64,000 nucleotides of DNA from Gossypium raimondii (taxonomy: Eukaryota; Streptophyta; Magnoliopsida; Malvales; Malvaceae). Both the position numbers and the translations under genes were made by a program. Numbering within the stretch: the first letter of the stretch is position 1; every line of letters begins with the position of its first letter. The stretch spans positions 25,110,001 to 25,174,000 of the forward strand of contig NC_068569.1 of NCBI RefSeq assembly GCF_025698545.1. Reading direction: 5' to 3'. Below the pieces are notes generated by a model. That model was not told the origin of the DNA. It ran no database searches and worked only from the letters and a program-made list of their open reading frames with translations. This document shows positions 10,775-61,257 of this stretch, one piece after another.

Positions 10775-13229
10775 TTTGCTTATCTCCTCCCTATCACATT
10801 GGAAACTTTATTTTTTATTCAGTTCTTTTTAACAACAGAAATGATTAAATACAAAAATGGATATCTAGTATATATTTTAATATTTTATCAATTTCATTTG
10901 AAATTATTAAATATATTTATTTGGGTAAAATATTTTCAATTTGTTTTAAATTTATAGTTTACATTATTTGTGTTATAAAAATAAAAACAATAATAAATTA
11001 ACTTCTAAACCATAAATAGTACAAATTAATAATATTATCCACGTGTATAATTAATAGTACACTATATGATAGCTACAATCAATATTATTTATATATATAA
11101 AAAAAATGTCACACAAATATTTAATCGCTAAAAAAATTATAGACTCATGAAGCTTAATAAATAATATAATAGAAATGAGGAGGAGAGGCGGAGGCTGACC
11201 AACAGAGAGGAAGGGAGGACGATTGTTTAAGCACATGATGATTAGAGGAAAGCTAGCCGTTGGATTAGGGAAGCGGCATAATTTATATAATTTTTTTATT
11301 CATTTTAATTATTTCTTAATATGAATTCTACTGATTTTAGCATTTTATTGGTAATTTTGTATGCAAGTATAATATTGTCCAGTGCATTGCAAAACAAATC
11401 AAGCTGTAAATTAAAATGAAGATTTTAAGATTCTTGGACATTAAAATTATTTTAGTAAGTATTTTTATTTATAAAAATATTTCTTTATGACTTTAATTGA
11501 GAATTAAATTTATCTTTTAAGCACAAAAAAACCTATATATTTCAATTTAGGGTTTATTAGTTTTTAAATTATTCTAGTTTAGAAAATAAGATTCAGTCGC
11601 CTTACAACATCATTTTAGCATAAAAAATGAGAAGAGCCTCTTGATTGGGTGTTAGATGACATATAGTTAGTGAACCGGAACGATCAGTAATTGTTGTGTT
11701 TAGTCCACTGAATAACAAATTAACACAACCAATAAAATGAATGGTCGGATCCGTCAAGCAAGTTTAAACAACTTGTGCAGTTGAGGCCGTTGATTTAAGT
11801 CGGGTCCTTCTAATTCGCAAGGCTAGCGAGGAATTAAATCGTGAAAGTTTATTTCAAGGTTATTCGCTTAGTAAGTATTAGTTGTCGAATTGTTCTCGCA
11901 ATTAATTTAGAATCAGAAGGGTTAGTGGTTTGAGGTTATTCCTAGAACATTATTAACTGACTTATTGATTGGAAGAGAAAATCTATTGTCCAGGATTTGT
12001 TTGAAGCTGAAGTCAAATTCGTGTTTGAAGTTGGAACTTTCAATTTTGCTTGTTTACTTTTACAGTGCTCAATTAGTTTTTTATATTTATATTTATTTAA
12101 ATTTTAATTATTTATTTTATAATTATATTAAATTTCTCTTGTATTTTTGCAGATTCACATAAATTCTTGGTTATAAAAAATAATAAAATTAATCAATCTA
12201 ATCTTTATAGGATCGATATTATTCATCATACTGTGAATTTAATTAAATTTTGTTTTAAGTATCAAAATTTATTTTTGATTGATTCCACAATCCACACCAT
12301 TGAAGGGTGGGAGAAGTGGAGGAAGGCGAAAGAGTAGAAGTAAAAAAATGGGAAAAGAGAGAGGACAGCTGGGTTGAAACAGGAGACGGAGAAAAAGTGA
12401 GGACTTGGGGAAGAGAAAGTCAAGGATTGGGAACCCTAATGCTACTGCATGGCATCAATGTTAAACAGTTCTCCTCGAGATACTAAAAAGAAAGAGAAAA
12501 GTATCTATAGGAACCTCTTTTATTATGATTGGAAGAAGAAACGTTTATTTTGTCACACATTTTGCCCTTCTTTTATAATAACCCTCTAACCACAATAAAC
12601 AGATGTCAAGTGTATTTTAAATTAAATCAAAAACTTATTGCATTAATTAAAACAAGTTAATAAACACTAGCATGATGAAATCAAAAGAAAATCAACAAAT
12701 TTCTTAATGTTGATGGTCATCACCCTCACTTCAACTTCCACTTCTCACCATATGAAGAATTCCAGTGTTCCACCCCAAATACATGTTCATCTCAATAAAA
12801 TTTTTTAAATATGAATCGAGATTCAACTTAATTAGAAATAAGTGATTTGTCAAGTGAACAAGAAGAGTGATACAAATTCGAAAGGTTGATTCTTTTATTT
12901 TTTTCTATTTTTATAGTAATTTCAACATTTAAATCAAAGGATAATACATATATATATTTAAGTACATTTAAATTATGTTTTTTGATATCAATCGAGATAA
13001 AACTCAATCTACATATTCATAGTTGAGCTAAATCTATACTATCTTTTTCATAAATTTGATTTCTTTGTCATTTAAGAAGCGCATCAAAAATTTCATAGAT
13101 TTTATTATATTGGATTTAGATGTTCATTTTCTCAATAAATTTTTTATTCTAAAAGATGATTTTTTTCAATTTTTGCTTATTCTTTTGTGAATTTGTTATA
13201 TTAGAAATAGTAATTTTGAACTTGCATAA
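10775..13229. other. Intergenic region upstream of the exonuclease gene
   Basis: No coding sequence is supported. 10775-11300 would hold the exonuclease promoter on the minus strand; I could not pick a single TATA box. About 11650-12290 is less AT-rich and resembles a decayed gypsy leader or 3' region (for example a GGATCGATATTATTC block near 12210), but no ends or domains could be fixed. 12300-12450 is a purine-rich stretch without other signal. The rest is AT-rich. Confidence 0.4.
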
Positions 13230-14350
13230 AATATTTCTCTCAATCATTTTGCTTTGGTTAGAGTTTTGCTTTAATTAATCATAGTGAAAATCAAATGAAA
13301 TAATCCTTAATACATTTATGTTACATTTGGTTATTAATGTAATAATATCTGAAGAAAAATTTATTTAACACATGTTTTAAAATACTTAGACATAAAATAA
13401 AAATAATTAATACACATTTAAACATAAAATTAGAAATATGAGTAGAAGTTTTATAAAAAATAAAACATCTTCAGAATAAGTGAAAAATTTTCCTTTTTGC
13501 CACAAATAAGTCGTGTGAGTGGCTAAAAAAATACCAACTGTGTTTAATTTATAGCTAATCAAAGGCTAAAACACGTGAAAAAAATAATATTCCAACCAAA
13601 CATAGCATTATAGTAACAATTTTTTTTTTGTTGATCCTCTATTCACTTTGAATATGATTTATGTCTTACAATGAGAGATTATATCTTTGGGATACCTATT
13701 CGAAACTCATTTCTGTGATGAATCAAAGCATGACAATTTTGATTTGGTATGGTAAGTCAAATGACTAGTTTTACGCTGTTGTCACATGAGATTATATTCT
13801 ATAGATACTTGTGTGATTATACAAGTAAAATTTTTCATGATAGATCATGTTCGATGAATTTTTCCAACATATTATATTAGTCTTAGTTCAGTTGGCATTG
13901 ATATTAATGCCAGCGCAGGAGGATGTAAGTTGGAGCATGCTTAGATGCGTTTATCTTACTATTTAAAGGTTGAGAGTGATTGTTAGTAGTTTTAGGCGTG
14001 GTATAAGAAGAAAAAGAAAAGCTAATCATGTACCAACAAGAACATGTTTATTCATATACTTGATAATCTTATTATCAAACTCATTACACTTGTTAGATTG
14101 GCAACCAAATTTAAAATTATAATCAAATAAATAGGGGGGAAAGATAAAATCAGTTGAAATTATCAAGGAGAAGGATAAATAAGCAAGCTTAAACTTGCAT
14201 TTTTATTTAGTGAATTACATTTTTTTTCTTTTCTCTCTTTGTTTTAAGAGATTTTATTAAAGTACACAAGAGACCCTCTCATAAATACAAGTGATAATTT
14301 AGAATGAATCCATGAGAGGAATGCGTGTTTAGAAAATAGAAAGAAGTGAT

Positions 14351-14813
14351 TCAAGGGCACTTGCCATTCTTGTACTTGGCATAGCAAGGGCATACTTCCT
14401 TGTTAGCAGTAGGGCCAGGGGGCACACACCCATCGCAGGTGTTGCAGCAAGCGTTGCATGTTTTAAGGCACATCTTCGGCTTCCATGACTTGCTGCACCT
14501 TGATGCACACTTCCCCTCGCATTCTGGGATTAGGGGTTTTCCATTAATGCATACATTCATATATAAAGCTTTTTATATTCGAAGAGTATAATTATTCATA
14601 AACTCTCTTACCTGGCCTTTGGACTTGGGCTTCAACCATTAGCATCCCAATCTAAGAATTGTCAAGAAAAGACATGATTAGTTTTGTGTTGGTACCTTAA
14701 AATCATGATGGATTGCAACATAAATTGCTGTTTAAAACCTTAAAATAAAGTACCTCGCAAACTAGGAAAAGACACAAAACAGCAAGCAAAAGGGTTGTCT
14801 TAGTGGTGGCCAT
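14351..14813 (-). CDS. GASA/snakin family cysteine-rich secreted peptide, copy 1
   Basis: Three exons, minus strand: 14813-14754, 14651-14612 and 14523-14351 (stop TGA 14353-14351). Junctions are GT...AG and give 90 aa. Residues 1-28 or so (MATTKTTLLLAVLCLFLVCE then IGMLMVEAQ) form a signal peptide; the C-terminal 56 residues (35-90) hold the 12 cysteines of the GASA domain, from C-x3-C-x3-C through TCNACCNTC to VCPCY and a final KCP. I chose the acceptor at 14525-14524 (CCCAG) because it yields exactly 12 cysteines and an 88-nt intron; another AG near 14565 would leave an intron of only about 43 nt. The spacing NTC-x2-C differs from the more common C-x-C here. GASA peptides are gibberellin-responsive apoplastic peptides acting in growth and antimicrobial defence (family knowledge). 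Coding sequence is identical to copy 2. Confidence 0.92.
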
Positions 14814-14895
14814 TCTCAAACTTGTTTCTCTTTATGTGTGTGTCCTTTCCTTTTTTATTGTGGTTCATTTCAATGCTAAGGTGTGGGGGGGGGGG

Positions 14896-14902
14896 GTTTA
14901 TA
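14896..14902 (-). promoter_or_regulatory. TATA box of GASA copy 1 beside a 12-G tract
   Basis: The minus strand reads TATAAAC about 83 bp upstream of the ATG, a sensible TATA position. A run of 12 G on the plus strand (14885-14896) touches its 3' side. The second gene copy has only 7 G there. Confidence 0.65.
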
Positions 14903-15267
14903 GGATAGAGGTATGAATCTCAAAACTAATTTTAGGAAGCTAATTTCTAATATTAGACAATTTAGCCATTCTTTTAGGAGTAATTACCCCAAATATATAT
15001 AAAAGAGGATAAACAAAACATGAATACCATCCTCAAACTTAATTTTCTATATAGTTACTCCCTAATTACAGTAGATTTGTTTTACATTAATTAAGTTTCA
15101 CTTCTTTATCTTCCTTCAATTATAATTAATTATATCCCTTTTATAATTCTTTTCTCTTTATCCATAATCATTTATATATATAAATTAGTTTTTTTTCATG
15201 CTGATTGATTTGTGTATTAATTAAAATATATTATATGTAAATATTAAAAACATTTCATCAATAATAT

Positions 15268-17414
15268 TGTCGAAACCATTTTTTATTTTGAAAAAACGGG
15301 GTCGACTTTTAAAACGAAAATGGAGTCGCCACCAATCTTTTTCGAGATGTGATCTCGGGCTCGGGAGTTGGTTACGCACGAGGAAGGATTAACACCATCG
15401 TAACGCCCAAAAATTGGTACCTAGTTGATTAATTAATGTCCTAATGTCGAAAAATTAAAAATTCGAAAAGAAATTTAAAAATATGATCATTTTATTAAAA
15501 AAAGAATGGTGTATTTCACATTAATCGAGAAAAAGAATTGTATCCCGTGAGTTAGGACACAATATCTCTAATCCCAACACGAGAATAAACACCAAAAAAT
15601 TATTTATTTTTAGAAATTTTGATCATCTTGGTTTTGGAGAAGAAATCATATCTAGTAAGTTGGAACTTTTCTGATTCCCAAGACAATTTTTTAAAAAACA
15701 TGTTTTTTTTTTAAAAAAGGGGTCGTATATTTGGAATTATCAAAAAAAATCGAGACCCCGTAAGTTAGGATACAATCTTTTCGAATTCCAAAATATGAAG
15801 TATTTTTATTTTAAGAAAAAAATATGCATTTGGGTCGAAATTAATGCGATACTTGAAATGTTACACGAATAAAATATTAAAACGACGAATAACGAGAATA
15901 CGAATGTAAAATAACAATGATCACATAATATACATCACTTTAATATTAAAAAACAACAAAATGAACAATAATAATGAATAATAAAGGTATAAGCAATAGT
16001 ATAAAAAATATAAGAAGACAATATCAAAATTAAAAGAAATTAATAAATAAATACACAAAATAGCGTTGAGGAAATTAATCTACGAAATATTAAAATGATT
16101 ATTAAAAAAGGTGAAATTAGGGTTATAAAAATAATAACATTAAAAATAATAAATAATCTAAAGTTTTTGAAAAAATAAAAATAGGAGATAAAATAAAATA
16201 AATGCATTTAAAGTCTTTAAGTTAGGAAAAAATATATATATATATAATGGAAATAATAGTATAAAACTAATTGATTTAAAGATATAGCTACAATAATAAG
16301 TACATAAATAAATAAGGTAAAATAATAATAGCAATAATAATTTTGAATTAATTAACTTAATAATAAAATAGTCAAAATGACAAAATAAGATTAAATTGGG
16401 CTTTAAAACAAAGTTTTGGGGCAAAATTGGAAATAAACGCAAAAGGGAGGACTAGATTAAACGCGCGGATGAGATGGAGGGACTGAATGGGAAATAATTC
16501 CCACCCTCCAAAACGCACAGTTCCATCAGGGACTAAAATTGAAGCCGGGATAAATTATAGGGCAAAATAGACCCTTCCACAAAAACACACGGCTCCTAAG
16601 GTTGGAGCGGGTCCGGTCTCGGGTTCATGGCCAAAATAGCGTTGTTTTGGTGCCTAAGAGGCCTGCAGGGCCTATAAAAGCCAAGTTTTAAACAAAAAAA
16701 TCTATTTAGCCCCTAGTTTCAAAAAAAAAAACTGAAAGCTCTCCCCTCTTCCTTCAAAGATTTCAGAATCGACCACTCGGCCGGCCACCACCATGGCCAC
16801 CGATCACCGGCTATGGCAGCCATGCATCCATTGTGGTAAAAAATCAAAAATATTTTTTGGGTATTTTCGACTCCCGAACCTGAAAAACACTGATTTTTAT
16901 CTGAATCGGCACCTCCCTCGCAAAAAGGTACGATTTTTATCCTTTTCTTCTTCTTTTTTGTTTTCTTAAAAAAATAAAAATAAATAAATAAATAAGCCGA
17001 AAAAAGAAAAAATGGCACAACTACCTTTGAAAATGATCTATATTTGAATTGATTTTTCTCTGTTCTCTTTTGATTCATTCGTAAGTAATAAAATAAAATC
17101 AGGGCCTTTTTTATAGCCCGAAAATACAACTTATTTTCCTATTTTTTTCTATTTTTTACACTAGTTTTTTTGCTTTTGGACTCTTCTAGTTTGTTTTGCA
17201 TGTGCAAGGACGTGGCGGCACACGCGGGGGAGGCGGCGGCAGCTGGAGGCTGTTGTTATGAACGTGGCGGATTAGGGTTTTTTGTTTTATTTTTCTAAAA
17301 GTGTTTTAGGATGTTCTGTTGGGCTAGGGTTTTAGTTATTTGGGCTGATTTGTATTTGTTTATTTCTTGTGTTTATTTTGGGTTTTGGGCCTAGGCTAAA
17401 ATTGGCTTATTACA
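15268..17414 (-). repeat. 3' LTR of the gypsy element (2.15 kb, full length)
   Basis: TG...CA ends, with the polypurine tract complement GCTGCCCCTCTTTACT just outside at 17415. Holds the GTCGCCACCAATC block seen in many plant gypsy LTRs. A TATA-like CCTATAAAAGCC at about 16672-16683 reads on the plus strand, opposite to the coding strand; whether it is used is unknown. Several long open frames in this LTR (for example 16719-17129) are low-complexity and were not called genes. Confidence 0.8.
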
Positions 17415-17430
17415 GCTGCCCCTCTTTACT
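17415..17430 (-). promoter_or_regulatory. Polypurine tract of the gypsy element
   Basis: The minus strand reads AGTAAAGAGGGGCAGC immediately before the LTR start TGTAATAAGCC. Its position and orientation set the element on the minus strand. Confidence 0.75.
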
Positions 17431-17564
17431 CATTGTCGTGTAACGAAAATGGAGCAAAAACTTAAAAATAATCAATTTTGCCTGGTCTTGCAAAGTCTTA
17501 ACCTCTCTTGGTGCTCCTCTTCTTCAAATAGCCTAATTCCAGCCCACTACGTCTTGTTGCTTCG

Positions 17565-18260
17565 ATCGACTCTACTGCAACTTCAGATACAACTTGTAGC
17601 TTCAATCTACTCTGTCGCGACTACTGCAACTTCAAAGGTATGGGATTTGTCGTTTTAATCCGCTCCACTGCAACTTCAGGGAGATAGGATTGATGGCTTC
17701 AACCTACTTCATAGCAACTTCAGGAAGATAAGGCTGGTGACTTCAATTTGCTGCACTGCAACTTCAGGAAGATAAGATTCGCCATAATTTGTAGCTTTAA
17801 TCTGTTCCACTGCTACGCCAGGGAAATAAGATTCGATGTCTTCAATATGCTCCGCTGCTACTTTAGGGAGATAAGGCTGGTGGCTACAATTTGCTCCACT
17901 ATAACTTCAGGAAGATAAGATTCACCATAGCTTGCAACTTTAATCTATTCCACTACTACACCAAGGAAAAGATTCGCTGTCTTCAGTCTGCTCCGCTGCA
18001 ACTTTAAGGAGATAAGGCTGGTGGCTTCAATCTGCTCCACTGTAACTTCAGGAATATAAGATTCGCCATAACTTGTAGCTTTAATCTGTTCCACTGCAAC
18101 GCCAAGGAAATAAGATTCGCTGTCTTCAGTCTGCTCCGCTGCTACTTCAGGGAGATAGAATTATTGGCTTTAATCTGCTCCACTGCAACTTCAGAGAGAT
18201 AAGATTCACCAACTTCTTCAATCTATTCTACTGCAACTTCAGTGGTATAGGATTTGTGGT
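17565..18260. repeat. Minisatellite in the 3' non-coding part of the gypsy element
   Basis: About 15 diverged copies of a unit with core CTCCACTGCAACTTCAGGGAG and tail GATAAGATTCGCC or GATAAGGCTGGTGGCTTCAA. Measured spacing between cores is 44, 44, 54 and 45 bp (17671, 17715, 17759, 17813, 17858), so two unit types alternate. A second, shorter series around 18530-18610 repeats TTCAATCCACTGTA-like words. Internal minisatellites between integrase and LTR are known in large gypsy elements. Confidence 0.8.
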
Positions 18261-19861
18261 TTCATCGATTTGTTCTCTGGGGAACATGACCTGTAGAATC
18301 CATTTCATGGGCCTATTTATGCCTAGTGATTAGGATGTTATAATCGGAATGAATCAAAATCTCCTAACTAGATGTGTATGCATGAATGCAAAATGTCATG
18401 AAAATGATCCCTTAATGTTTGAGTTATTATTGCTCGTTGTTCATTAAGGCTCTATCACCGACACGTTAGAACGCCATCTTGTTCGGCAGGTATTTCCACA
18501 GAAACACTTATATTTTACTTAATCAGATTGCCCCCACTGTAGTCTTCAAGGTTCAATCCACTGTAATCTTCTAGGTTCAATCCACTATACTTTTGGGATA
18601 TAAAATTTGAATCATTTTCCTCCCACTATAATTTAAGAGTGTAAGATCTGGCTCTTTCTCAATCCTCTCCTACTACAATTCAAGGATACAGGATCTGAAT
18701 CTCTTCGGTCTCCTACACCATTCCCAGGGTGTCATACCAAATGTTTATGCACAATTGTATAACTTTTTTCTCCAAGAACAACCTCTTCCTATTACTCGGT
18801 GATCATTGCTTGCTTGTTCATTGAAGCTATATCACCAACACGATATCTTGTTGTTGTTTTTTCAATCAATACTTTTGACAACAAAATCCAAAGAGATAGT
18901 TTTAATTTAGACTTTTCCTTCTTAGATATTTCAACCTTTAAACTTGGTGTGTTCTAAACAATAGTCCTGTTTCAGGTTCTTGTATTATTTAGAAACTTCT
19001 AGAGTAATATGCAAAACTTCCCTTGTGAAAGTATTATTAGCCTATTAATCATTATTCTAACGCAACATGCTTGCAAAAAGATTATAAAAATGGATAAAAA
19101 TAAAATTGATTTAGAGCATAGCTCGGAATGAATAAATTATCAAGGATGATATAAAAAAAAGAATTGATTGGGAACACGCATCTTGAAAAGAAATGAAGTA
19201 TTCCAAGAACAACAAATTTAATATAAATAGTATGTAGAGTAGGTACCCCAGATATTGCAGCTTGATCTTCTCTATACCAACTTTCTGAAAAACTGTTTTT
19301 TGAATTTGACATATGTTTAGGAGATCTACAGTACTTTTTCGATGCCCCAGATGTCGCATCCCCTTTCCTGTTGATTTAGGTATAACAAGATCACCGCATG
19401 ATCCATTTTGGTCAATATTTGAGCTGCCCTTTTCGAGTTTTCAACTCAAATCCCCTTTGGTCTCAAGGCGCCATTTCCGGGTTTTCACCTTGGTCTTTTT
19501 TTAGGACTCAAAGCGCCCTTTGCGGGTTTTCACCTTGGTCTCTTCTCCTTTTTCAAGTGAAGTACTTCTTGACTGGATCTGAGTTTACAGGATTAGGCAA
19601 GTTTTTACCATCTATTTCACTCAAAACCAATGCTCCTCCAGAAAAGGCATTTTTTACAACATAAAGTCATTCCTAATTTGGCATCCATTTCCCTCTAAAA
19701 TCCTTTTGTAGAGGAAGGATCTTTTTCAACACCAGGTCCCCTTCGTGGAATTTTCTCGGACGAATTTTTTGTTGTAGGCTCGTATCATTTGTTTCTGGTA
19801 CATCTGACCGTGGTGAATAGCTTTTAGCCTTTTTTCCTTCTATTAGGTTCAACTGATCATA

Positions 19862-20862
19862 TCAAGATTGGATCAATTCTACTTCATCCAACTTTAGCTC
19901 AGCCAATACCCAGAGAAAAGGAATTTCAACTTCAATGGGTAAAATTGCCTCCATACCATAAACCAAGGAGAAATGTGTTGCCCCGGTGGAAGTCCTGATT
20001 GATGTTCGATAAGAAAATAGGGCAAATGGTAATTTCTTATGCCAGTCCTGGTAAGTCTCAGTCATTTTCCCCACAATTTTCTTGATATTTTTGTTGGCTG
20101 CCTCAACTGCACTATTCATTTTTGGGTGATATGGTGACGAATTATGGTGTCTGATCCTGAATTGACTGCAGAGCTCTGCTATTGAGCTATTGTTCAAATT
20201 CAACGTATTGTCAGATATGATTCTTTCAGGTATTCCATTTTCAAGAACTTGCTGACTGCTGACTTTATGACATTAGCACACGAAGCAGCTTCTACCCATT
20301 TAGTGAAGTAATCAATAACCATGAAGATGAAACGATGCCTATTAGAAGCCTTCGGTGATATTGGCCCGATGACATCCATACTCCACGTGGAGAAAGGCTA
20401 TGGAGAAGTCATAACGTGAAGAGGTAAAGGAGGTGCGTGTATTTTGTCTCCATAAATTTGGCATTTATGGCACTTCTTGGTATAATTGATGCAATCTTCT
20501 TCTATGGTGGACCAGTAGTACCCGAATTTCATAATCTGTCTAGCCATTGTGAAACCACTGGCATGCATTCCGCAAATACCCTTTCGGACCTCCTCCAAGA
20601 TTTTCTTAGCCTCCACAGTGTCCACACATCTTAATAGTACCTGATCATTTCCCCTTTTATATAAGATCTCCTCATCTAAGACATAATCATTGGCTAGTCT
20701 TCTTAGAGTCCTCTTATCATTCTCAGCTGCCCAGTCATGATACTTACGATTCTTCACATATTGTAATATATCTTGATACCAAGGGCTGTCATCCTTTTCT
20801 CCGTATTCGATATTGTAACAATGAGCTGGGGTTTCATAAATGCTCATCTGTTTAGGCTTCAT
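19862..20862 (-). pseudogene. Gypsy integrase, frameshifted
   Basis: N-terminal zinc region at about 20600-20440 reads GICGMHASGFTMARQIM...CHKCQ: the first His and both Cys are present, but the second His of the HHCC site is Phe. The core starts MDVIGPISPKASNRHRF (about 20380-20330), and a frameshift near 20240 is needed to reach the ISDNTLNLNN block and the catalytic Glu region (NSAVEAANKNIKK, about 20120-20080). The C-terminal part (GYRTS-like SYRTSIRTSTGATHFSLVYG) follows. It cannot be active as it stands. Confidence 0.85.
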
Positions 20863-21038
20863 ATCCTATTGTCTGTTCACTTTGATTATGGAGGCTAGAG
20901 TAGCCAACGCGTCGCCATCTGGTTTTCTTCTCGTGGGAGATAGCAGAAATAAATGTCATCAAACTCTTCAATCAATTCGAGAACCAGCTTTCGATAACTA
21001 GTTAATTTGGGATCTCTCGTTTCCCATTCACCTTTGAG

Positions 21039-21266
21039 TTAGTATATCACCAATGATGAATCTCCATATACCTCTAGTATCGCATTAACTTTATCTGGGT
21101 CGATCTCAATTCCTTTTTCACTGACTATGAAGCCTAACAGCTTTCCTGATCTACCTCCGAAATTGTATTTTGATGGATTGAGCTTGAGCTGAAACTTCCT
21201 CAATCTTAGGAGCAATTTCCTCAAGACTTGAACATGTTCATCTTCTTTACTGAGATAGTATATCAC
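21039..21266 (-). pseudogene. Second copy of a reverse-transcriptase segment, in frame inside RNase H
   Basis: Minus-strand protein with VQVLRKLLLRLRKFQLKLNP...SGKLLGF...IEIDPDKVNAI, a near repeat of the RT segment at 21568-21800. Here it is preceded by RNase H sequence (VIYYLSK) and followed by YGDSSLVIYQLKGEWETRD of the second RNase H, all in one open frame. The normal centre of the RNase H region is missing at this place. Confidence 0.8.
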
Positions 21267-21311
21267 CCTTTCTTTCTTTCCTGTAGTATATCACCCTTTC
21301 TTTCTTTCCTG
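21256..21311. repeat. 28-bp tandem duplication in gypsy RNase H
   Basis: TAGTATATCACCCTTTCTTT... occurs at 21256-21283 and again at 21284-21311 without a gap or mismatch that I can see. It lies exactly at the upstream joint of the inserted RT copy. Confidence 0.8.
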
Positions 21312-21567
21312 TCTTATCATGTTGGCCTAACACACATCCCATAGAATTGTCAAACATCGTTAAATACAGTATCAGCGGCCTATCTGGACTAGGTGGTGAC
21401 AGTACTAGAGTATTAGACAAGTACGATTTTACCCTGTCAAAAGCTCCCTAACATTTCTCGTCCCACTCACCTGGATTATGTTTCTTTAAAAGATGGAATA
21501 TTGGATCATATTTTTTGGTTAATTGTGAAATAAATTGGGCAATGTAATTCAATCTTCCTAGGAAACC

Positions 21568-22107
21568 TCAAACTTCCTTCTGAGTACGTGGTGGAGGTAA
21601 TTTTCGTATCGTATTAACTTTATCTGGGTCGATCTCAATTCTTTTTCCACTGACCATGAAGCCTAACAGTTTTCCTGAGATAGCTCCGAAAGTGCATTTT
21701 GATGGATTGAGCTTGACCTGAAACTTCCTCAATCTTAGGAGCAATTTCCTCAAGACTTGAACAGGTTCCTCTTTTTTTCTGGATTTTACAATCATATCGT
21801 CGAAGTAAACCTCGATTTCCTTATACATCATGTCATGAAACAAGGCTACCTTGGCTCTTTGATATGTTGCTCCTGCATTCTTTAAACCAAATGGCATCAC
21901 TTTATAGCAAAACGTTCCTCACAAGGTGATGAATGTGGTCTTTACCATATCTTCGGGATGTATCTTTATCTGATTGTATCCGGAGAAGCCATCCATAAAG
22001 GAAAACAGAGAGTAGCCTGTTGTATTATCCACTAAAGTGTCAATATCAAGCAATGAGAAATTGTCTTTTGGGCTGGCCTTTTTCAGTTCCCTATAATCCA
22101 TACACAT
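21568..22107 (-). pseudogene. Gypsy reverse transcriptase, one stop/frameshift
   Basis: Blocks in order: MCMDYRELKKASPKDNFSLL, FMDGFSGYNQIKIHPEDMVKT, MMPFGLKNAGATYQRA, and YFDDMIVKSRKKEEPVQVL, whose FDD is the catalytic motif (YFDD variant of YxDD). A stop at about 21910 separates the first two from the rest. It continues into RKLPPPRTQKEV, the usual end of the RT domain. Confidence 0.85.
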
Positions 22108-22313
22108 TCGTACTTTCCCATCTTTTTTAGGGACTGGGACGATATTGGCTACCTATTCGGAATACTTGACCGCCTGTAAGAACCCAACATCAAACTACTT
22201 TTTGACTTCCTCCTTTATTCTTAGCACAATATCCTGCTTTATCGTCTGAAGTTTCTGCTGGACTGGCTTGCAATCCTCTCTTATAGGAAGGTGATACACT
22301 ACAATGTCAGTGT

Positions 22314-23745
22314 TTAACCTAGGCATATCCTGGTATGACCATGCGAAGACATATTTGAATTCTTAGAGTAACTCAATGAAGTCTCGCCAATCTTTGTGGT
22401 AATGTCAGTTCCAACCTTCACCTCTTTTCCCTCTTCCAAGCTCACAATTTCTATTGATTCCTTGTGAGGTAGGATTTGTTTTTCTTCGTGTTCTACCATC
22501 CTCAACAAGTCTGGAGATAAACTACAGTCTACGTTATCTTCAAAGTCATGCGATCCCTTTAAACACATGTCTTGTTCAAAAGGAAATTCTGAGTTTGTAG
22601 CAGTGTTATTCATGTCATTGATATTTAGGGACGTATTGTAGGTACAAAAGAATAAACAAAGAATGTATGAATTTATGAATAATCATTTGTACAGTGTAAC
22701 TATGAATGAATAAAAGAATGATTTGGAAGAAAATCCAAAAGAATGAAAGAATCAAAGAGAATTACTCGTATAGAATGAAAGAATATTTGCTCAAAATGAT
22801 TGCAAAGATATACTTCATTAAAATAATAATGTTTAAACATTAGCATATTTCACAAATGGGTTCTTATCACTTCTTAGGCTAAAAGCAATAAGAGCGTTCT
22901 GAACATTACTCTGAGTAAGCTTTAAATACTACAGGGATTTCTTCTGTAGTCCAATTGCTTAGCATGCTCCCAGGTTTATAAGGGCGGATATCTAACAAGG
23001 TCCCTCTTTCAGTTGTTCCTTTATGAATGGCATTGATGTGAACGTTTCTCAAAATTTTTTTAATACTTTCTCTTATTGGCGTCTTTCGCTCGGGATGATT
23101 AATCCTTTCTGACATAAAAATTTCGGCTATGCAAGGGAATATCATTGGTTCCCACTTGATTTTTTCCCCACTCACGCGTGCCCTTCTTCTTTCTTGCCTC
23201 TTCTCTAACTCTTTCCTTCTTTGTCTTGTATTTGACTTGTACCCTAAGCCAAAACGGTCATGCTTGTCCTTTAGCATTGGAGTCTCAACTCTTCCCTGAA
23301 GATGTCTCCCTAGTACTTTTCTCGGTAAGACTCATCTTCCTACTATCAATTGTAGACCCATTCTCGTAGTCTTGGACATTTTTGGTACCGGAATCCTGTT
23401 CTCCTCAGTAATAAATGTTGCATTCACAAATTCTAAAGACAGAAAATAATATTCAACAGCTTCATCATCTGTCTCCAAGTATGGTGCATCACTAGTTACG
23501 GCCGCTATAATATCCTCTTCGACATTTACTGTCACCAGCTGACCTTCTGACACTTGCTTCAACTTTTGATATAGTGATGACGGTACAGCCCCTGCCGAAT
23601 GTATCCAAGGTCTCCCTAACAAACAGTTATAGGAAGGCTTGATATCCATTACTATAAAGTCCACATCATAGGTAGTTGGGCGAATTAACAGAGGTATTTC
23701 AATTCTTCTCAAGACTTTCCTTTTTGTACCATCAAATGCTCTCAC
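22314..23745 (-). pseudogene. Gypsy protease and spacer
   Basis: 23745-23332 carries the C-terminal half of an aspartic protease-like domain (VDFIVMDIKPSYNCLLGRPW then IHSAGAVPSSLYQKLK), the usual layout upstream of RT in this lineage. 23277-22906 (GLGYKSN...) and 22613-22314 are spacer parts of pol before RT. The active-site DSG-type block should lie further right (about 23800-24300) and is broken by stops. Confidence 0.65.
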
Positions 23746-23999
23746 TATATTTTAGCATGATTTCATGTGAGAGCTGTCCACATGAAACCTATTTAACGTG
23801 GACAAGGGCAAAACGTTCAATACCGATACATTGTCAATCAGAACCCCTTGTAATGTGTACCATTTGCATCTGGTAGTAATGTGCAGAGCTTTAGTTGATC
23901 CCATACCCGTGGTGGTATTTCATCGTCATTGAACAAAATAAAGTTATCAGCACTTATGTTGTTAACCAGTCAATCCAGTTTATTGACCGAAATATCATT

Positions 24000-26311
24000 G
24001 GCCACGTATGTCTCATTTAGCACTTTCATCAATGCACTTCGGTGTACCTCCGAACTCAAGAGTAAAGCTAATACAGATATGCGAGCTGGTTGTTTATGCA
24101 ATTGCTCCACAACACTATACTCGTTGTGTTTCAAAAACTTCAGAAATTACCTGGCTTCCTTCTTTTTCACTGGCTCATTAATTGGCGGCTCAAGTTCAGC
24201 TATTTTTCTCTTCTCTTATTCCGTCGTCAGGGCTTTTCCTTTTACCGATTCTGTTCGAGCATATATCAGATCGTAACATCTCCCACTATGCGTATGAGAA
24301 CCTACATCCTGATCCTTCTTTGAAGCACTGGATAAATCTTTCTTTCCCAGATTTGCCACATCACAATTATAATTCCAGGGTACCCTCTTACTATCTTTAT
24401 AAGCAAAGACTGCAGGTTTCTAAATTATGATATTTGGTGTCATCTGTACTCCCGCTTCATTATTTTTAGGTTGCGAGATGGTGACCACAGAATAATTAAC
24501 TTTTGGAACCTCTATTGTTGACTATGACGTGCATATACTTCCCACTTTTTTAACTTTTTCACAGAACTCCATCTCTTTATTGTTTATCATGCCTTGCACC
24601 AATGCTCTGAATTCTTCACACTATTGGATCTTGTGCCCCACTTCATGATAGAACTCACAGTAGTTCCTCATCTTTTCGTAACTTTCTTCTGAATTCAAAA
24701 TGATTGACCCCCTTTTTACCATCTCTTTCCAGACCTATCTCAAAGGAGTTTTTATTTCTGCAATGTTTATCTTGATTCTTCTTCCCACATCTTCACTCAT
24801 CGCGTTTACCCCATTATCAATAAGATTGAGTTACGGATTTTCTGCATTAGATGGGTCATCGAATTTAACAATGCCCATACTAATGAACCTTTCAACTAAC
24901 TTTTTGAAGGCACTGCAATTTTTTATCGAGTGCCCCGTGATTCCTGTATGGTATTCGCATTGGGCGTTTGCGTCATACCATTTGAGGTACGGAGGTTGTA
25001 TTGGCTTTAAGTAAAAGGAGAAATGACATGTGCATCGAATAAACTCTGATACAACTCCCTATATCACCTGGATTGTCGTAAATTGGGGTTTCTCAGTGTT
25101 TTGCTTTGCGCCAAATTTTTTTTTTGATGAACCTTGTTGACCAGCAACCACCTTTCTTGGCTGATTTACAGTAATCGATTTAGAGTAACCCTTATTATAT
25201 GTACTTGTATTGTTCACCTCGTTTTCTTGTGTTGTTCACTTCGTTTTCTTTTTTCCTCGAGGCTGACCTTTTGTTACTTTCTCCGGCATCTATATTTCCA
25301 CTTCTTATAGCATTCTCAATCATCTCGCCATTCATGACTATATCTAAAAAACTTTTTGTGGCACTTCCTAGCATGTGTGTGATGAATGGGGCTTTTAGCG
25401 TGTTGATAAAGAGCATCGTAGTTTCTTTTTCTAGGAGCGGCGGCTGAACTTGGATGGCAATCTCCCTCCATCTCTATGCATATTGCCTAAAACTCTTACT
25501 ATGTTTCTTTTCCATGTTTTGTAAAGTAATTCTATCAGGAGTCATATCGTTACATGACTATATTGCTTCATGAATGCTTGTACTAGGTCCCTCCACGAAC
25601 TAATCCTGGTACAACTCAATTGGTTCTACCATTTGGATGCTGTCCCCACCAGGCTATCTTGGAAGCTGTGTATTAGTAGTTGGTCATTGTTAACGTATCC
25701 AGCCATTCTTCTGCAAAACATAGTGATGTGAGCCTCGGGCAACTGGTTCCATTGTACTTTTCAAAGTCCAACATTTTGAACTTGTAAGGAAGTACTAAAT
25801 CTGGAACCAAGCTCAGATCTTTAGCGTCGAATCCATGATGATTATCAGCACTTTCCAATGTTTTGAATTTTTCTTCCAGCCATTTACACTTGTCTTCTAG
25901 CTATTTTGGCAATTCCACCTTCGCCTTTTCCTTTTCTGCCACTTCATCAAAATCGGGGATAACGGGATTAATTGGGTTATCTCTTGGGTTTGAACCTAAT
26001 CCAGCCTGAAAGTTCATTGGCATCGAAGCATCGACCTAAGATTGTTGAGGCCTAATTGTGACGGACGGTCTCCGCGGGTACATCTCAGCTTGGGCCTATA
26101 TAATTGGTGGAGTAAAACCTGGAGGATAGAGCGGCTCCTCATTATCTTCACTAGGGCTGGTCATGGGGCCTTTTCCTTGATCTATTATCCTAGCCAATAA
26201 TTGGGTCAACTGGGCCATCATATTTCTTTGAGATTCCAACATCTTTTCCGTCATATCTTGCTGAATTTTAGCTAGCTGCTCTTGCATTTGCGTTTGTAGT
26301 TGATCTTGCAT
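24000..26311 (-). pseudogene. Gypsy gag, fragmented
   Basis: 26311-26096 encodes a Gln-rich coiled coil (MQDQLQTQMQEQLAKIQQDM...) typical for the N-terminus of this gag. 25858-25673 has KFKMLDFEKYNGTSCP, the start of the retrotransposon gag core, and 25416-25195 continues with LFINTLKAPFITHMLGSATKSF. Stops and indels separate the pieces. 24000-25000 reads as the C-terminal gag and protease linker, also broken. Confidence 0.7.
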
Positions 26312-26954
26312 CTCCCTTTGAAGTTGTTCAAGTCTTTCTAATCTTTGGTCTATGTATTTTGTCTTAGCTCGGGTACCGTAATGATGTTTGGTTGGTAGGT
26401 TTTTTACCGATTTCCAGCTAAACTGAAATGATTTTAACCAATTAGGATCTTTTGGTGGACTTTAATACATATGATGTAATGTAATGCAAATGAATAAAAT
26501 GAATGCAAAAAGACATCGATTTTGATTCAATTCCATTTAAAAAACTTTACCAGAAAAAAAAATTCTTTACATAAAACAGATTACATATATGGCTTTGCCC
26601 TAATACTCAAAACTTTAATTTTTCTAAGCAGTAAAGCTAGCTCCTACCCCCGGTCTATTCCAGCTCGTACTTTACACTCAGTATATCAGCTTGTACTGCC
26701 AAAGTCTGTAAGTAATCGGCTACCTCTCGAATCTAAGTCACATCCTCTCCCATAACGTGATCTCTGTTTCTAACCTGGTTTTGACAAAATTGGAGCTGCT
26801 CTTTTTGACGCTCTTCACTGGCTTCAAGGAATTCAATCCGCATTTCACAGTTTTATAATATCATTTCTAATTCTTCCATTTTTCTTTTCATTTCCTCGAT
26901 CCTGTCTAAGCTCGCTCTTAGCTTTTAGTTCATCATTTTCATTTCGGTTTTGGG
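26312..26954 (-). other. Untranslated leader region of the gypsy element
   Basis: Between gag and the LTR remnant. No conserved coding and no clear primer-binding site on the minus strand. Short frames here are not supported. Confidence 0.4.
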
Positions 26955-27249
26955 GGAGCTCAACTATCAATAGAGAGCCTCCCCCTCATTTGTACTCACT
27001 CCATTCATTGTTTCATTATTCTTTGTGAATAAGAGAATAGAGAGCATTTACTCAAACACTTTGCGAGCGTCCTTTCTGTTGTTCTTTGTTGTTCTTCTTT
27101 TAGCATAAATCGCTTCCGCTCTTCAATTGGTGCCTTGGAGGAGTTCTAAAAGAATCCTCACTTGAGTTAAGGCTGACTTGGGCGAGTTTGGATGAACGGA
27201 TCGCCTAAGGCTGCACGGTTTGCGAGACGAAAGGTCTAGCCCCATGACA
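26955..27249 (+). mobile_element. Fragment of another LTR element (LTR end plus leader)
   Basis: Starts near GGGGGAGCTCAACTATC, runs through TTTGTACTCACTCCATTC, GTGAATAAGAGAATAGAGAGC and ATTTACTCAAACACTTTG, which look like the R/U5 part of a plant gypsy LTR on the plus strand. It then reaches TTCAATTGGTGCCTTGGAG (about 27125-27143), which looks like an LTR end and primer-binding site, and a leader with CTAAGGCTGCACGG. It replaces about 1.9 kb of the host element's 5' LTR. Family assignment is from memory. Confidence 0.45.
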
Positions 27250-27459
27250 CAAGGACGTGGTGGCACACGCGGGGGAGGCGGCGACAGTTGGAGGCTGCTG
27301 TTAGGCGCGCGGCGACTAAGGGTTTTTTGTTTTATTTTTCTGAAAGTGTTTTGAGCTGTTTTGTAGAGCTAGGGTTTTAATTATTTGGGCTGATTTGTAT
27401 TTGTTTATTTCTTGTGTTTATTTTGGGTTTTGGGCCTAGGCCAAAATTGGCCTATTACA
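27250..27459 (-). repeat. Truncated 5' LTR of the gypsy element (210 bp)
   Basis: Matches the last 210 bp of the left LTR (17205-17414), including CAAGGACGTGG, GCACACGCGGGGGAGGCGGCG and GGGTTTTGGGCCTAGGC, with scattered differences. The terminal TTACA and the AATAT flank are intact, so only the inner part was lost. Confidence 0.85.
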
Positions 27460-28572
27460 AATATTTCTCTCAATCATTTTGCTTTGGTTAGAGTTTTGCT
27501 TTAATTAATCATAGTGAAAATCAAAGGAAATAATCCTTAATACATTTATGTTACATTTGGTTATTAATGTAATAATATGAAGAAAAATTTATTTAACACA
27601 TGTTTTAAAATACCTAGACATAAAATAAAAATAATTAATACACATTTAAACATAAAATTAGAAATATGAGTAGAAGTTTTTATAAAAATAAGACATCTTC
27701 GAATAAGTGAAAATTTTTCCTTTTTGCCACAAATAAGTCATGTGATTGGCTAAAAAATACCAAATGTGTTTAATTTATAGCTAATCAAAGACTAAAACAT
27801 GTGAAAAAATAATATTCCAACCAAACATAGCATTATAGTAACAAACTTTTTTTTTTGTTGATCCTCTATTCACTTTGAATATGAGTTATGTCTTACAAAG
27901 AGAGATTATATCTTTGGGATACCTATTCGAAACTCATTTCTGTGATGAATCAAAGCATGACAATTTTGATTTGGTATGGTAAGTCAAATGACTAGTTTTA
28001 CGCTGTTGTCACATGAGATTATATTCTATAGATACTTGTGTGATTATACAAGTAAAATTTTTCATGATAGATCATGTTCAATCAATTTTCCAACATTATA
28101 TATTAGTCTTAGTTCAGTTGGCATTGATATTAATGCCAGCGCAGGAGGATGTAAGTTGGAGCATGCTTAGATGCGTTTATCTTACTATTTAAAGGTTGAG
28201 AGTGATTGTTAGCAGTTTTAGGCGTGGTATAAAAAGAAAAAGAAAAGCTAATCATGTACCAACAAGAATATGTTTATTCATATACTTGATAATCTTATTA
28301 TCAAACTCATTACACTTGTTAGATTGGCAACCAAATTTAAAATTATAATCAAATAAATATGGGGAAAGATAAAATCATTTGAAATTATCAAGGAGAAGGA
28401 TAAATAAGCAAGCTTAAACTTGCATTTTATTTAGTGAATTACATTTTTTCTTTTCTCTCTTTGTTTTAAGAGATTTTATTAAAGTACACAAGAGACCCTC
28501 TCATAAATACAAGTGATAATTTAGAATGAATCCATGAGAGGAATGCGTGTTTAGAAAATAGAAAGAAGTGAT

Positions 28573-29035
28573 TCAAGGGCACTTGCCATTCTTGTACTTG
28601 GCATAGCAAGGGCATACTTCCTTGTTAGCAGTAGGGCCAGGGGGCACACACCCATCGCAGGTGTTGCAGCAAGCGTTGCATGTTTTAAGGCACATCTTCG
28701 GCTTCCATGACTTGCTGCACCTTGATGCACACTTCCCCTCGCATTCTGGGATTAGGGGTTTTCCATTAATGCATACATTCATATATAAAGCTTTTTATAT
28801 TCGAAGAGTAGAATTATTCATAAACTCTCTTACCTGGCCTTTGGACTTGGGCTTCAACCATTAGCATCCCAATCTAAGAATTGTCAAGAAAAGACATGAT
28901 TAGTTTTGTGTTGGTTTCTTAAAATCATGATGGATTGCAACATAAATTGCTGTTTAAAACCTTAAAATAAAGTACCTCGCAAACTAGGAAAAGACACAAA
29001 ACAGCAAGCAAAAGGGTTGTCTTAGTGGTGGCCAT
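28573..29035 (-). CDS. GASA/snakin family cysteine-rich secreted peptide, copy 2
   Basis: Exons 29035-28976, 28873-28834 and 28745-28573, the exact counterparts of copy 1 shifted by 14,222 bp. The deduced 90-aa protein (signal peptide, then 12-Cys GASA domain) is identical, and I see no nucleotide difference in the exons; introns differ by isolated substitutions (for example near 28811 and 28914). Both copies keep start, stop and splice sites, so both should be functional. The likely difference in control is the shorter G tract beside the TATA box. Same functional expectation as copy 1. Confidence 0.92.
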
Positions 29036-29112
29036 TCTCAAACTTGTTTCTCTTTATGTGTGTGTCCTTTCCTTTTTTATTGTGGTTCATTTCAGTGCTA
29101 AGGTGTGGGGGG

Positions 29113-29119
29113 GTTTATA
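29113..29119 (-). promoter_or_regulatory. TATA box of GASA copy 2 beside a 7-G tract
   Basis: TATAAAC on the minus strand, about 78 bp upstream of the ATG. The adjoining G run on the plus strand (29107-29113) has 7 G against 12 in copy 1, which moves upstream elements by about half a helical turn. Confidence 0.6.
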
Positions 29120-29482
29120 GGATAGAAGTATGAATCTCAAAACTAATTTTAGGAAGCTAATTTCTAATATTAGACAATTTAGCCATTCTTTTAGGAGTAA
29201 TTACCCCAAATATATATAAAAGAGGATAAACAAAACATGAATACCATCCTCAAACTTAATTTTCTATATAGTTACTCCCTAATTACAGTAGATTTGTTTT
29301 ACATTAATTAAGTTTCACTTCTTTATCTTCCTTCAATCATAATTAATTATATCCCTTTTATAATTCTTTTCTCTTTATCCATAATCATTTATATATATAA
29401 ATTAGTTTTTTCCTGCTGATTGATTTGTGTATTAATTAAAATATATTATATGTAAATATTAAAAACATTTCATCAATAATAT

Positions 29483-30574
29483 TATTAAAAAATAATATTT
29501 AAAATAAACTTGAATGATTTGATATTACTCCAAATTATGCTTTTAGCTTTACTTCTAAAAATAGAGTTGGAATATAATTTAAAGATTAGAAAGAAAATAA
29601 AATTAAGTTAGTAAATAAAAATTACATTAAAAAGTTGTATAAAAATATATAAAATTTGTATGTAAATTAATAAACTGATCTGTATGATTTCAGTAATATC
29701 TTTAATATTTTCTCATTTATCTATTAAAGAAAGAAATATTTGATATATATTATATATGAAGTTCAGTTTTCAATTATTAAAAAAGGAGTCTACGAATAAA
29801 TGTGTAAAGTTTAAATTTCAGGGACTTGAAGCACATATTTATATTTTCCAATATAAGAACTTAATATTAAGAAAAAATTAAAATTGGATTAAGTGTATAC
29901 ACGTTTATATTTTTTTCCATAAGCAAGGTTTAAATCAATTATAACAAAGATTAGTAACATATATGAGTATTCAAGGTTGATAAATTTCTATAAAGAAATT
30001 GGATTGAAATAATATTCATTTTAAACTTTAGTCAATAAAGACACGTTGCAAATAATTAACATGCCAAATAGCAAAATTTTAACTTTAAATTACTATAATA
30101 TATATCAGATAGGGAGTAGGGATTGATCAGAGATAAAATTCAAAATTGATCAATAATACTTTTGTTTACAAAGTTTATATACTTTATGGTGATGGTGAAA
30201 AGCACTCAATGGTTAAGAATCTCTGTATTTTATTTAACAAGCCAAATTATTTTGTCTTTATAATTCAACCATTATATTTCAATCTACTTTCCTTAATCGA
30301 AAATATCATCTCTAACTATATATATATTTAATGATTGGATGATATTTTTAATTTTAATCATCAAAACGCTAAAAAATCTGAAGAAAAAACCAAAAAAATT
30401 GCCGCCATGAACCAAATATGCTTTGAAATGAACTACTAAATGGAGGGTAATGAGAACTGACCAAAAGTAGAAATAAATTTAATTATACTTGGAAATAATA
30501 AATGAGAAGAAGATTTTAAAAACAGTTGGCAAATAAAATAAAAAGCATGTTGGAGTAGAATCCTAAAGTCATAT
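29483..30574. other. Intergenic, AT-rich
   Basis: Unique flank of the duplication and the 3' side of the E2 gene. Frames at 30146-30331 and 30436-30675 lack any family signature. Nothing else seen. Confidence 0.5.
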
Positions 30575-45426: not shown

Positions 45427-45449
45427 GGGCCTATAGCTCAGAGGATTAG
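45427..45449 (+). pseudogene. 5' fragment of plastid trnR-ACG
   Basis: GGGCCTATAGCTCAGAGGAT then TAG matches the first 23 nt of plastid tRNA-Arg(ACG), acceptor arm and D-arm start. It stops there because nuclear sequence resumes. It lies downstream of 5S as in plastid genomes. Confidence 0.75.
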
Positions 45450-45450
45450 A

Positions 45451-45735
45451 AACTTATTGCATATTTGAAATAAGTGATTTTTATTTATATCTAACAATCT
45501 TATAACTATTTCGTACTCATGGATGTGTTGTACGTTGTCAAGTCTTGTTAGGATCTTTTTCTTATATGTTGAATGATGAAAAAAAAAATCATATGTTAAG
45601 TGTTGGATTTAAAAGTGAAAATTAGAAAATTTTATTTTTTTCTTAAAGAATACACTTGCGCGGCGTAATCTCAAAGAAAAAAAAATTAGAACTTCATTAA
45701 CTAAAGTTAATGTCGAACTTATTGCATATTTGAAA
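45451..45735 (-). repeat. Target duplication around the plastid insertion, copy 2
   Basis: 45451-45470 (AACTTATTGCATATTTGAAA) is the end of repeat unit 1, displaced to the right side of the plastid DNA. 45472-45713 repeats 44412-44643, and 45716-45735 repeats the 20-bp end again. So the plastid DNA sits inside the first of two tandem units. The repeated DNA is copia RT on the minus strand. Confidence 0.88.
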
Positions 45736-48054: not shown

Positions 48055-48080
48055 GAGAGAGAGAGAGAGAGAGAGAGAGA
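48055..48080. repeat. GA microsatellite (13 units) in the CDPK 5' UTR
   Basis: Uninterrupted (GA)13, 23 bp upstream of the chosen start codon. GA/CT tracts in 5' UTRs or core promoters are common in plants and may affect expression. Confidence 0.9.
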
Positions 48081-48103
48081 TCCCATCTGAGATATTTGTG
48101 GCA

Positions 48104-56600: not shown

Positions 56601-56790
56601 TCTATTTACATCGTTGGTAACTTTAAAAGATGTACCCCAACTGCATTCACCAAAGTGAATGTTAATATGTATTAAGTATTTTTATCAAAATAATGTATTT
56701 TTAATGTTTGAAACATTTTAAAGTAGATACATTAACCAAATCATGTATCTTTAACGATTAAAGTTAATTTTTTAACAGCTTTTTTCAGCC

Positions 56791-57841
56791 AATATGGGAT
56801 TATCCACTTTGCATTACCAACATTCTCCTACTAATGTAAAAAAAAATTGAATTTTTTTGTAAACGTACATGAGAAAAGGTAAACGTGAGAAGAGCAACAA
56901 CGAAATTAGTCGCTTAAGCACTAGTATCTTGTTGATTTGAACTAGTACATAATTAAATGAGTGATTCTTCTATTTAACAAGTGAATGAATTTTGAACTTT
57001 TTAATATAGAAGTTAACTCATAACACAAGACTAATCTCAAATGCAATTCAGGTTTTGCGATAGATCAACAAATTTTAACCAATACACCTCAGGGTGTTGG
57101 CAAGTGTTCTAGAAAGACTGCCTAATGTATTTCATAAAAGATGACTAGTTCTTCACACTTACGTAGATGATTTCATCAAATCTATCTTAATATAGATTGT
57201 CTGAATCAAGACTATAGAATCACTAAAAACATTTACTAAACTCATCCCCTAAAATTTAAATTCAATGAATTTATCAAGTTGCTCTCAATAATATGTTTGG
57301 AATTGAATTCTATAACACTTATAATAAATCATAAAATCTAAGTTCCAAGACTCTAGATGTCATAATATATGTAATTTTATTCGTAAAAGTATATTTTAGA
57401 ATTTTATTTTATGAAAATTATTATGTTTATTGTGATGACATGTCAAAATGTTTTATGATTAACCTAGATAAAACTTAAAAGAAAAATAGTCTTATGATTA
57501 ACCTAAGAAAAAATTCTAAAATGAACTAACTCGGTGTACTTTATCAATTTTAGATTTGGGTGTTCAGTTACATGTAGAGAAATATCAACACCTATCCTAA
57601 ATTCCATTTCTCTTTTATACGTTCAACATAATTAAACTCAATCTTTCTAAAAAGGTCCTCGTCCACTCACGAAACAAGCTTACAAATCGACCCCTCTTGC
57701 CAGCTTCATTAAAAATGTTTTGAAATACTTGTCGTGCTTCTACTATTGAGCTATCTAAGTTATCCGCATTTCACTCCTTATCATGTATAGTATAGATATT
57801 GTATTTTTTTTTTTTTATGTTTGGTTTTCGATGATGGTGTT
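56791..57841. repeat. Tandem unit part A, copy 1
   Basis: Repeated at 60246-61255 in the same orientation. Landmarks: GGGATTA(T/C)(C/T)CA, GAAGAGCAACAACGAAATTAG, AATGAGTGATTCTTCT, TTGGAATTGAATTCTATAAC, AGGTCCTCGTCCACTCACGA, CTTGTCGTGCTTCTACTATT. No coding found. Confidence 0.85.
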
Positions 57842-61255: not shown

Positions 61256-61257
61256 AT

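What the first reader, a model, noticed from the sequence alone, without database searches (positions are those of the whole stretch)
13230..29482. 12-kb gypsy element sits exactly between two copies of a 2-kb direct duplication
13230-15267 and 27460-29482 are near-identical direct copies, and the whole space between them is one LTR element with intact TG/CA termini. The element is flanked by AATAT on both sides, like a normal 5-bp footprint. The same AATAT(T) also occurs at the left start of copy 1 and at the right end of copy 2. Three readings: (a) a microhomology-driven tandem duplication at AATATT, then insertion exactly at its junction; (b) an insertion at the left AATAT followed by an unequal exchange through the 5-bp microhomology with an uninserted chromosome; (c) exchange between two insertions at the two AATAT sites. 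(b) needs the fewest coincidences. The result duplicated an entire gene.
Basis: partly seen in the sequence, partly recalled or inferred. Interest (0 to 1): 0.75.

Follow-up and report, generated by a model that had tools for sequence, protein, structure and literature searches.

The report
Cotton gene duplicated around old retrotransposon
A 2-kb stretch carrying a small plant peptide gene (GASA) exists in two near-identical copies exactly on either side of a decayed retrotransposon, most likely because a later repair or copying error used the element's short target-site repeat to copy the neighbouring gene, a local oddity rather than a new kind of system.

Summary
X1 (13230-15267) and X2 (27460-29482) are direct copies: 30 substitutions in 2,021 aligned sites, 11 gaps. 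Between them lies only a minus-sense Ty3/gypsy element E (15268-27459), with AATAT at all four edges. Each copy has the same GASA coding sequence, best hit Gossypium.

The element is less intact than reported: its right LTR is cut to 210 bp (left 2,147), and pol has stops and a frame change.

Two pairs inside E (LTR pieces 21/210, internal repeat 15/176) differ more than X, also on transversions alone (14/386 versus 17/2021, p=1e-4). So E probably preceded the duplication. This speaks against reading (a). It weakens (b), whose E-free and E-bearing chromosomes should differ by at least E's age beside the insertion; the left 150 bp show one substitution and one gap.

I prefer templated repair or a template switch: E old, X copied once through the AATAT target-site repeat and rejoined at E's edge. 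LTR clocks are imperfect and no relative genome could be searched, so the route, and which copy is new, stay open.

The parts
13230..15267 (+). X1, left copy of the direct duplication (2,038 bp), beginning and ending with AATAT
14351..14813 (-). GASA gene copy 1; exons 14754-14813, 14612-14651, 14351-14568 (splice sites inferred), 105 aa, open
   Evidence: PF02704 E=3.8e-15; Gossypium best hit
15268..27459 (-). E, Ty3/gypsy LTR retrotransposon, 12,192 bp, decayed
   Evidence: relatives of its integrase piece in Gossypium
15268..17414 (-). full 3' LTR of E (2,147 bp); 454 bp separate it from the GASA-1 start codon, same orientation
   Evidence: purine-rich stretch directly next to it at 17415-17430 (read by eye)
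27250..27459 (-). truncated 5' LTR of E (210 bp left of about 2,147), 21 of 210 sites differ from the 3' LTR, no gaps
21568..22152 (-). reverse transcriptase pieces (RVT_1, above Pfam's cut-off) interrupted by an in-frame stop at 21919-21921
21250..21447 (-). RNase H piece (RT_RNaseH_2, E=1.6e-9)
19862..20865 (-). integrase pieces: H2C2 zinc binding (above Pfam's cut-off) and rve core (two weak matches, E about 0.001-0.002, below the cut-off, in two different frames); in-frame stop at 20398-20400
21077..21781 (-). internal 176-bp direct repeat of E: 21077-21252 and 21606-21781, 15 of 176 sites differ, no gaps; used as a second clock
27460..29482 (+). X2, right copy of the direct duplication (2,023 bp), beginning and ending with AATAT
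28573..29035 (-). GASA gene copy 2; exons 28976-29035, 28834-28873, 28573-28790, same protein as copy 1

Best explanation
E inserted first at one of the two AATAT sites flanking X, making its normal 5-bp repeat, and then decayed in place. Much later a break or stalled fork at the outer edge of E was repaired by copying. The free end ending in AATAT primed at the other target-site copy across E, which matches by construction, copied X up to the AATAT at its far end, and then rejoined E's edge at that 5-6 bp match. The product is flank-X-E-X-flank with one E and AATAT at every edge, and it needs no E-free chromosome. Shown here: the anatomy, the microhomology, and that two pairs inside E are more diverged than X. 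Inferred: that this means E is older, the break, the template switch and its route. By symmetry either X1 (E originally at the left site) or X2 (E originally at the right site) can be the new copy.
For: AATAT at all four edges and junctions exact to the base. One E only, with none at the outer edges, so not ordinary sister exchange between E copies. E pairs 36/386 versus X 30/2021, p=3e-13; transversions only 14/386 versus 17/2021, p=1.1e-4. Truncated 5' LTR and broken pol. The best-scoring database relative of the integrase piece is 79% identical over its full length; the highest identity among the 120 listed of 325 hits is 82% over 75% of it. Low divergence at both edges of X, 3 substitutions in 300 bp, against a gene-converted older duplication. 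Plant break repair with copied filler is documented: PMC3706897 passages, PMC3445842 passages, PMC4423477 passages.
Against: A 2-kb filler is long: repair duplications in vertebrates reached at most 619 bp (PMC2671141 passages) and rice excision fillers 1-123 bp (PMC4423477 passages). The break must lie at E's edge and AATAT must be used twice. LTR clocks misorder events: about one fourth of nested plant elements showed higher LTR divergence than the element they had inserted into (PMC7251063 abstract). Here the LTR clock is also short and uneven: the inner 131 bp hold 19 differences and the outer 79 bp only 2, change-point p=0.04, and 2/79 is close to the rate in X. On LTR transversions alone the excess over X is weak (6/210 versus 17/2021, p=0.017). 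The two E pairs have no gaps while X has 11, although X is richer in long single-base runs (9 versus 1 in the LTR piece and 0 in the internal repeat). The internal repeat could predate the insertion.
Confidence: 0.4

Rival explanations
1. One reading: E at the left AATAT, then an unequal exchange or templated repair with an E-free homologous chromosome, joined at AATAT(T).
For: Gives the exact structure with one E and explains flank-X1 continuity with long homology; E older than the duplication fits.
Against: E-free and E-bearing haplotypes split before E inserted, so X next to the insertion should differ at least as much as E's clocks say; the left 150 bp of X show 1 substitution (and 1 gap), P=5e-6 if the true rate were 10%, but only P=0.08 if it were 2.8%. 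Recombination between haplotypes could also have erased the signal.
Confidence: 0.25
2. Insertion-coupled repair: E's integration intermediate broke at one side, the end copied X from the E-free sister chromatid and annealed to the 5-nt target overhang at E's edge. Insertion and duplication are one event.
For: Explains why the junction is exactly E's edge and the target 5-mer with the fewest coincidences. Repair of this kind during target-site filling is described in PMC3445842 (passage). The outer 79 bp of the LTR differ at only 2 sites, like X.
Against: Predicts equal clocks; the LTR pair is about six times more diverged (K2P 0.109 versus 0.018 for non-coding X), and transversions alone still differ.
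Confidence: 0.15
3. One reading: two related insertions, one at each AATAT site on different chromosomes, and a homologous exchange inside them, leaving one chimeric element.
For: Explains exact edges automatically and lets the LTR difference be that between two family members rather than age.
Against: Needs two insertions of one family 2 kb apart into the same 5-mer (AATAT occurs once per 238 bp in the window), both younger than X's 1.5-1.8%, although E is decayed.
Confidence: 0.08
4. One reading: tandem duplication at AATATT first, insertion later exactly at the junction.
For: Geometry fits; AATATT occurs 4 times in X1.
Against: Two pairs inside E are more diverged than X, and X is young up to its edges.
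Confidence: 0.06
5. Assembly artefact joining two haplotypes or subgenome copies.
For: Reads were not available; the copies differ by only 1.5%.
Against: A false join would have to fall on a 5-6 bp match exactly at E's edge, with no longer overlap.
Confidence: 0.06

Closest known systems
Repair-mediated duplication by synthesis-dependent strand annealing (PMC2671141, passages)
   Same: Nearby DNA copied into a break with short microhomology, leaving a direct local duplication.
   Different: Those copies average 162 bp with a maximum of 619 bp and mostly lie within 5 kb; here 2 kb and a gene were copied across 12 kb, and the match used is the element's target-site repeat.
Gene duplication by strand-annealing repair coupled to TE insertion, as described for wheat (PMC3445842, passages)
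   Same: A gene-bearing fragment used as filler at an element edge.
   Different: There the repair accompanies the insertion; here E looks older than the duplication.
Tandem direct duplication by reversed-ends transposition of maize Ac (PMC3744419, abstract and passages)
   Same: Direct copies with a transposon exactly between them and none at one outer breakpoint.
   Different: A DNA-transposon reaction with 8-bp repeats; E is an LTR retrotransposon, which does not excise (general knowledge).
Unequal recombination between LTR retrotransposons (PMC7251063, abstract and passages)
   Same: A recombination outcome that involves LTR elements and their flanks.
   Different: The passages that I read treat loss of elements and solo LTRs, not gene duplication. 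Exchange between sister-chromatid copies of E should leave further elements at the outer edges (own reasoning); none is present.

Membership tests
Ty3/gypsy LTR retrotransposon | Two LTRs with TG/CA ends | tested here: inconclusive
   Outer ends intact; left LTR full, right LTR only 210 bp of about 2,147
Ty3/gypsy LTR retrotransposon | RT, RNase H, integrase in that order on one strand | tested here: met
   RVT_1 22152-21568, RT_RNaseH_2 21447-21250, H2C2 20862-20398, weak rve 20397-19865, all minus; reading frames broken
Ty3/gypsy LTR retrotransposon | Gag and protease upstream of RT | tested here: inconclusive
   None of the six upstream pieces scanned matched a gag or protease family (23332-23745; 22909-23331, 24834-25058, 25198-25473, 25676-25900 and 26099-26461; the last had only weak matches to unrelated families)
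Ty3/gypsy LTR retrotransposon | Polypurine tract next to the 3' LTR and primer binding site next to the 5' LTR | tested here: inconclusive
   Purine-rich stretch next to the 3' LTR read by eye; no primer site recognised by eye, the place where it should lie appears deleted
Ty3/gypsy LTR retrotransposon | 5-bp target-site duplication | tested here: met
   AATAT on both sides; in the preferred model one of them may derive from the end of X
Tat lineage of gypsy elements | Second (RVT_3-type) RNase H between RNase H and integrase (recalled as a Tat mark) | not tested
   Found in relative P0016 and listed for many hits; not sought in E itself
GASA/Snakin peptide family | C-terminal cysteine-rich GASA domain | tested here: met
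   PF02704 E=3.8e-15 in residues 49-102
GASA/Snakin peptide family | N-terminal signal peptide | not tested
   No signal-peptide program used
Repair-mediated (strand-annealing) duplication | Microhomology of a few bases at both joints | tested here: met
   AATAT at all four edges
Repair-mediated (strand-annealing) duplication | Copy size as in described cases | tested here: not met
   About 2 kb here against at most 619 bp in vertebrates (PMC2671141)
Repair-mediated (strand-annealing) duplication | Empty ancestral site in a relative or allele | not testable with these tools
   No plant genome reachable; the genome search unanswered
Reversed-ends transposition | DNA transposon with transposase and terminal inverted repeats | tested here: not met
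   E encodes reverse transcriptase pieces and has LTR sequence in direct orientation at its ends

The most novel reading that the evidence does not exclude
The target-site repeats around long-dead LTR elements act as ready-made microhomology that lets repair copy a neighbouring gene across the element, so that old insertions keep seeding precise duplications of flanking genes without transposing again.
Probability: 0.3. Interest if true: 0.55.

Novelty: new variant of a known kind. Interest (0 to 1): 0.36.

Why it matters
If right, an element need not move or recombine with another copy to duplicate a gene: its 5-bp footprint is enough. The signature (direct copies flush with an element, the target 5-mer at all four edges, element older than the copies) can be searched for in any plant genome. 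Here it also put a full LTR 454 bp from the GASA-1 start codon in the same orientation, while GASA-2 continues into the right flank, a ready pair for testing expression divergence of two genes for the same protein.

Tried and rejected
Similarity beyond the element edges: not found. A second E or LTR elsewhere in the window: none among self-matches over 60 columns at E up to 1e-10. Gene conversion making an older X pair look young: not excluded, but the edges of X are as similar as the middle. X differences are unevenly spread (10 in 130 bp near 13453-13574, scan p=0.004; 23 of 30 in the left part, p=0.015), which fits a slippage-prone stretch or partial conversion; part of the clump is a TA-register shift. 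Faster decay of methylated LTR sites: 9 of 15 LTR transitions are in CG or CHG context, so transversions were also compared alone. X as a mobile element of its own: I saw no terminal inverted repeats by eye; not tested further. Species: genus Gossypium inferred from one protein differing at 1 of 90 shared residues from P0001 (my count on the output, after leaving out the 15 residues that a different splice site adds); the species was not identified. The eight paper searches listed no paper whose title or shown start of abstract reports this locus; that is not proof that it is unpublished.

Full report
What is there. The longest direct repeat in a self-comparison of the window is 13229-15268 against 27459-29483, 97.6% identical over 2,042 columns. 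Base by base, X1 (13230-15267) and X2 (27460-29482) differ at 30 of 2,021 aligned sites (13 transitions, 17 transversions) with 11 gaps. The four edges read ...GCATAA|AATATTTCTC (left of X1)...CAATAATAT|TGTCGAAACC (X1 into E)...CTATTACA|AATATTTCTC (E into X2) and ...CAATAATAT|TATTAAAA (X2 into the right flank). No similarity runs past the element edges.

The gene. Each copy encodes the same 105-residue protein on the minus strand from three exons (inferred splice sites). It matches Pfam GASA, and its best of 14 database hits is a Gossypium protein that lacks 15 residues, as a different splice site would give, and differs at one shared residue (my count). The 318-base coding sequences show no difference in the alignment. 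X holds 454 bp upstream of the start codon; beyond that, copy 1 meets the full LTR of E in the same orientation and copy 2 continues into the right flank.

The element. E (12,192 bp) runs on the minus strand. Reverse transcriptase, RNase H and integrase pieces lie in gypsy order; the two rve core matches are weak and below Pfam's cut-off, and the pieces scanned upstream of RT matched no gag or protease family. The 3' LTR is 2,147 bp (15268-17414) with a purine-rich stretch beside it. The 5' LTR is reduced to 210 bp (27250-27459). In-frame stops lie between the two reverse transcriptase pieces and between the integrase zinc-binding and core pieces, and the frame changes inside the integrase core. 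A 176-bp stretch is repeated inside E. The integrase piece matches 325 proteins, 120 of them listed; most of the named ones are from Gossypium. The best-scoring is 79% identical over the full piece, and the highest identity listed is 82% over 75% of it. Only proteins of 0.55 to 1.75 times its length were eligible.

Order of events. LTR pieces differ at 21 of 210 sites, the internal repeat at 15 of 176, X at 30 of 2,021. LTR versus X: p=9.7e-10, and transversions only p=0.017. Both E pairs versus X: p=3e-13, and transversions only 14/386 versus 17/2021, p=1.1e-4. K2P is 0.109 for the LTR pieces and 0.018 for non-coding X, a ratio of about 6. So E most likely stood in place before X was duplicated. 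Cautions: the LTR difference is concentrated in the inner 131 bp (19) and nearly absent in the outer 79 bp (2), change-point p=0.04; neither E pair has gaps while X has 11; the internal repeat might be older than the insertion; and a survey of plant elements found that about a fourth of nested elements have more diverged LTRs than the older element around them (PMC7251063 abstract), so LTR clocks can put events in the wrong order.

Gene conversion. If X were an old duplication made young by conversion, stretches near the ends of homology should be spared. The outer 150 bp on both sides together hold 3 substitutions (and 2 gaps) where 30 would be expected at 10% (P=5e-10); against a rate of 2.8%, close to the LTR's transversion rate, the contrast is weak (P=0.03). 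This argues against (a) rescued by conversion but does not exclude it.

Why (b) is weakened. In (b), X1 comes from an E-free and X2 from an E-bearing chromosome. These lineages parted, at the insertion site, before E inserted, so X near the site should be at least as diverged as E's own clocks. The left 150 bp show one substitution (P=5e-6 at 10%, P=0.08 at 2.8%). Long recombination between haplotypes could also have erased the signal, so (b) is not excluded.

Preferred mechanism. The two target-site copies beside E are a perfect 5-bp match across E. An end at E's outer edge that ends in AATAT can prime at the other copy, synthesise X, reach the AATAT at X's far end and anneal back at E's edge. 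This yields what is seen with a single E, no second element and no E-free chromosome. The route is inferred. Copied filler in plant break repair is documented (PMC3706897 passages; PMC4423477 passages), also coupled to element insertion (PMC3445842 passages), but the filler and repair-duplication sizes given in the passages that I read are far shorter than 2 kb. Maize Ac can place a transposon exactly between direct copies, and the authors used the absence of an element at one breakpoint to argue against recombination between elements (PMC3744419, abstract and passages). The same absence speaks here against ordinary sister exchange between E copies. E-first with a microhomology joint, by either route, I put at about 0.65 in all.

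Limits. No plant genome could be searched, the genome search did not complete, and the species is unknown below genus. Which copy is new cannot be told from one sequence.

Noticed in passing
44408-45713: Two direct repeats (44408-44643 and 45468-45713, 89%) flank a stretch holding a full-length 5S rRNA match (45057-45173, 49 bits); possibly a 5S-derived or small terminal-repeat element.
   Followed up: partly
4452-8294: Short direct repeats of about 130 bp (93%) around plus-strand ORFs, one with an RVT_2 match (6997-7866): probably a copia-type element with short LTRs.
   Followed up: partly
56783-61929: Set of direct repeats (56783-57841/60240-61255 at 83%, 59526-59876/61257-61609 at 88%, 59987-60249/61663-61929 at 88.5%), a second duplicated block.
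   Followed up: no
53757-54057 and 33415-33488: Two self-complementary stretches: about 300 bp at 72% and 74 bp at 86%.
   Followed up: no
17647-18211: About four copies of a 143-bp tandem repeat inside E, next to its 3' LTR.
   Followed up: no
21256-21312: Perfect 28-bp tandem repeat next to the internal 176-bp repeat of E, another local copying event in the same element.
   Followed up: no
48020-52567: Plus-strand protein kinase piece (Pkinase, 48020-48709) followed by ORFs with kinase-like and calcium-binding-like stretches by eye, probably a calcium-dependent protein kinase gene.
   Followed up: partly
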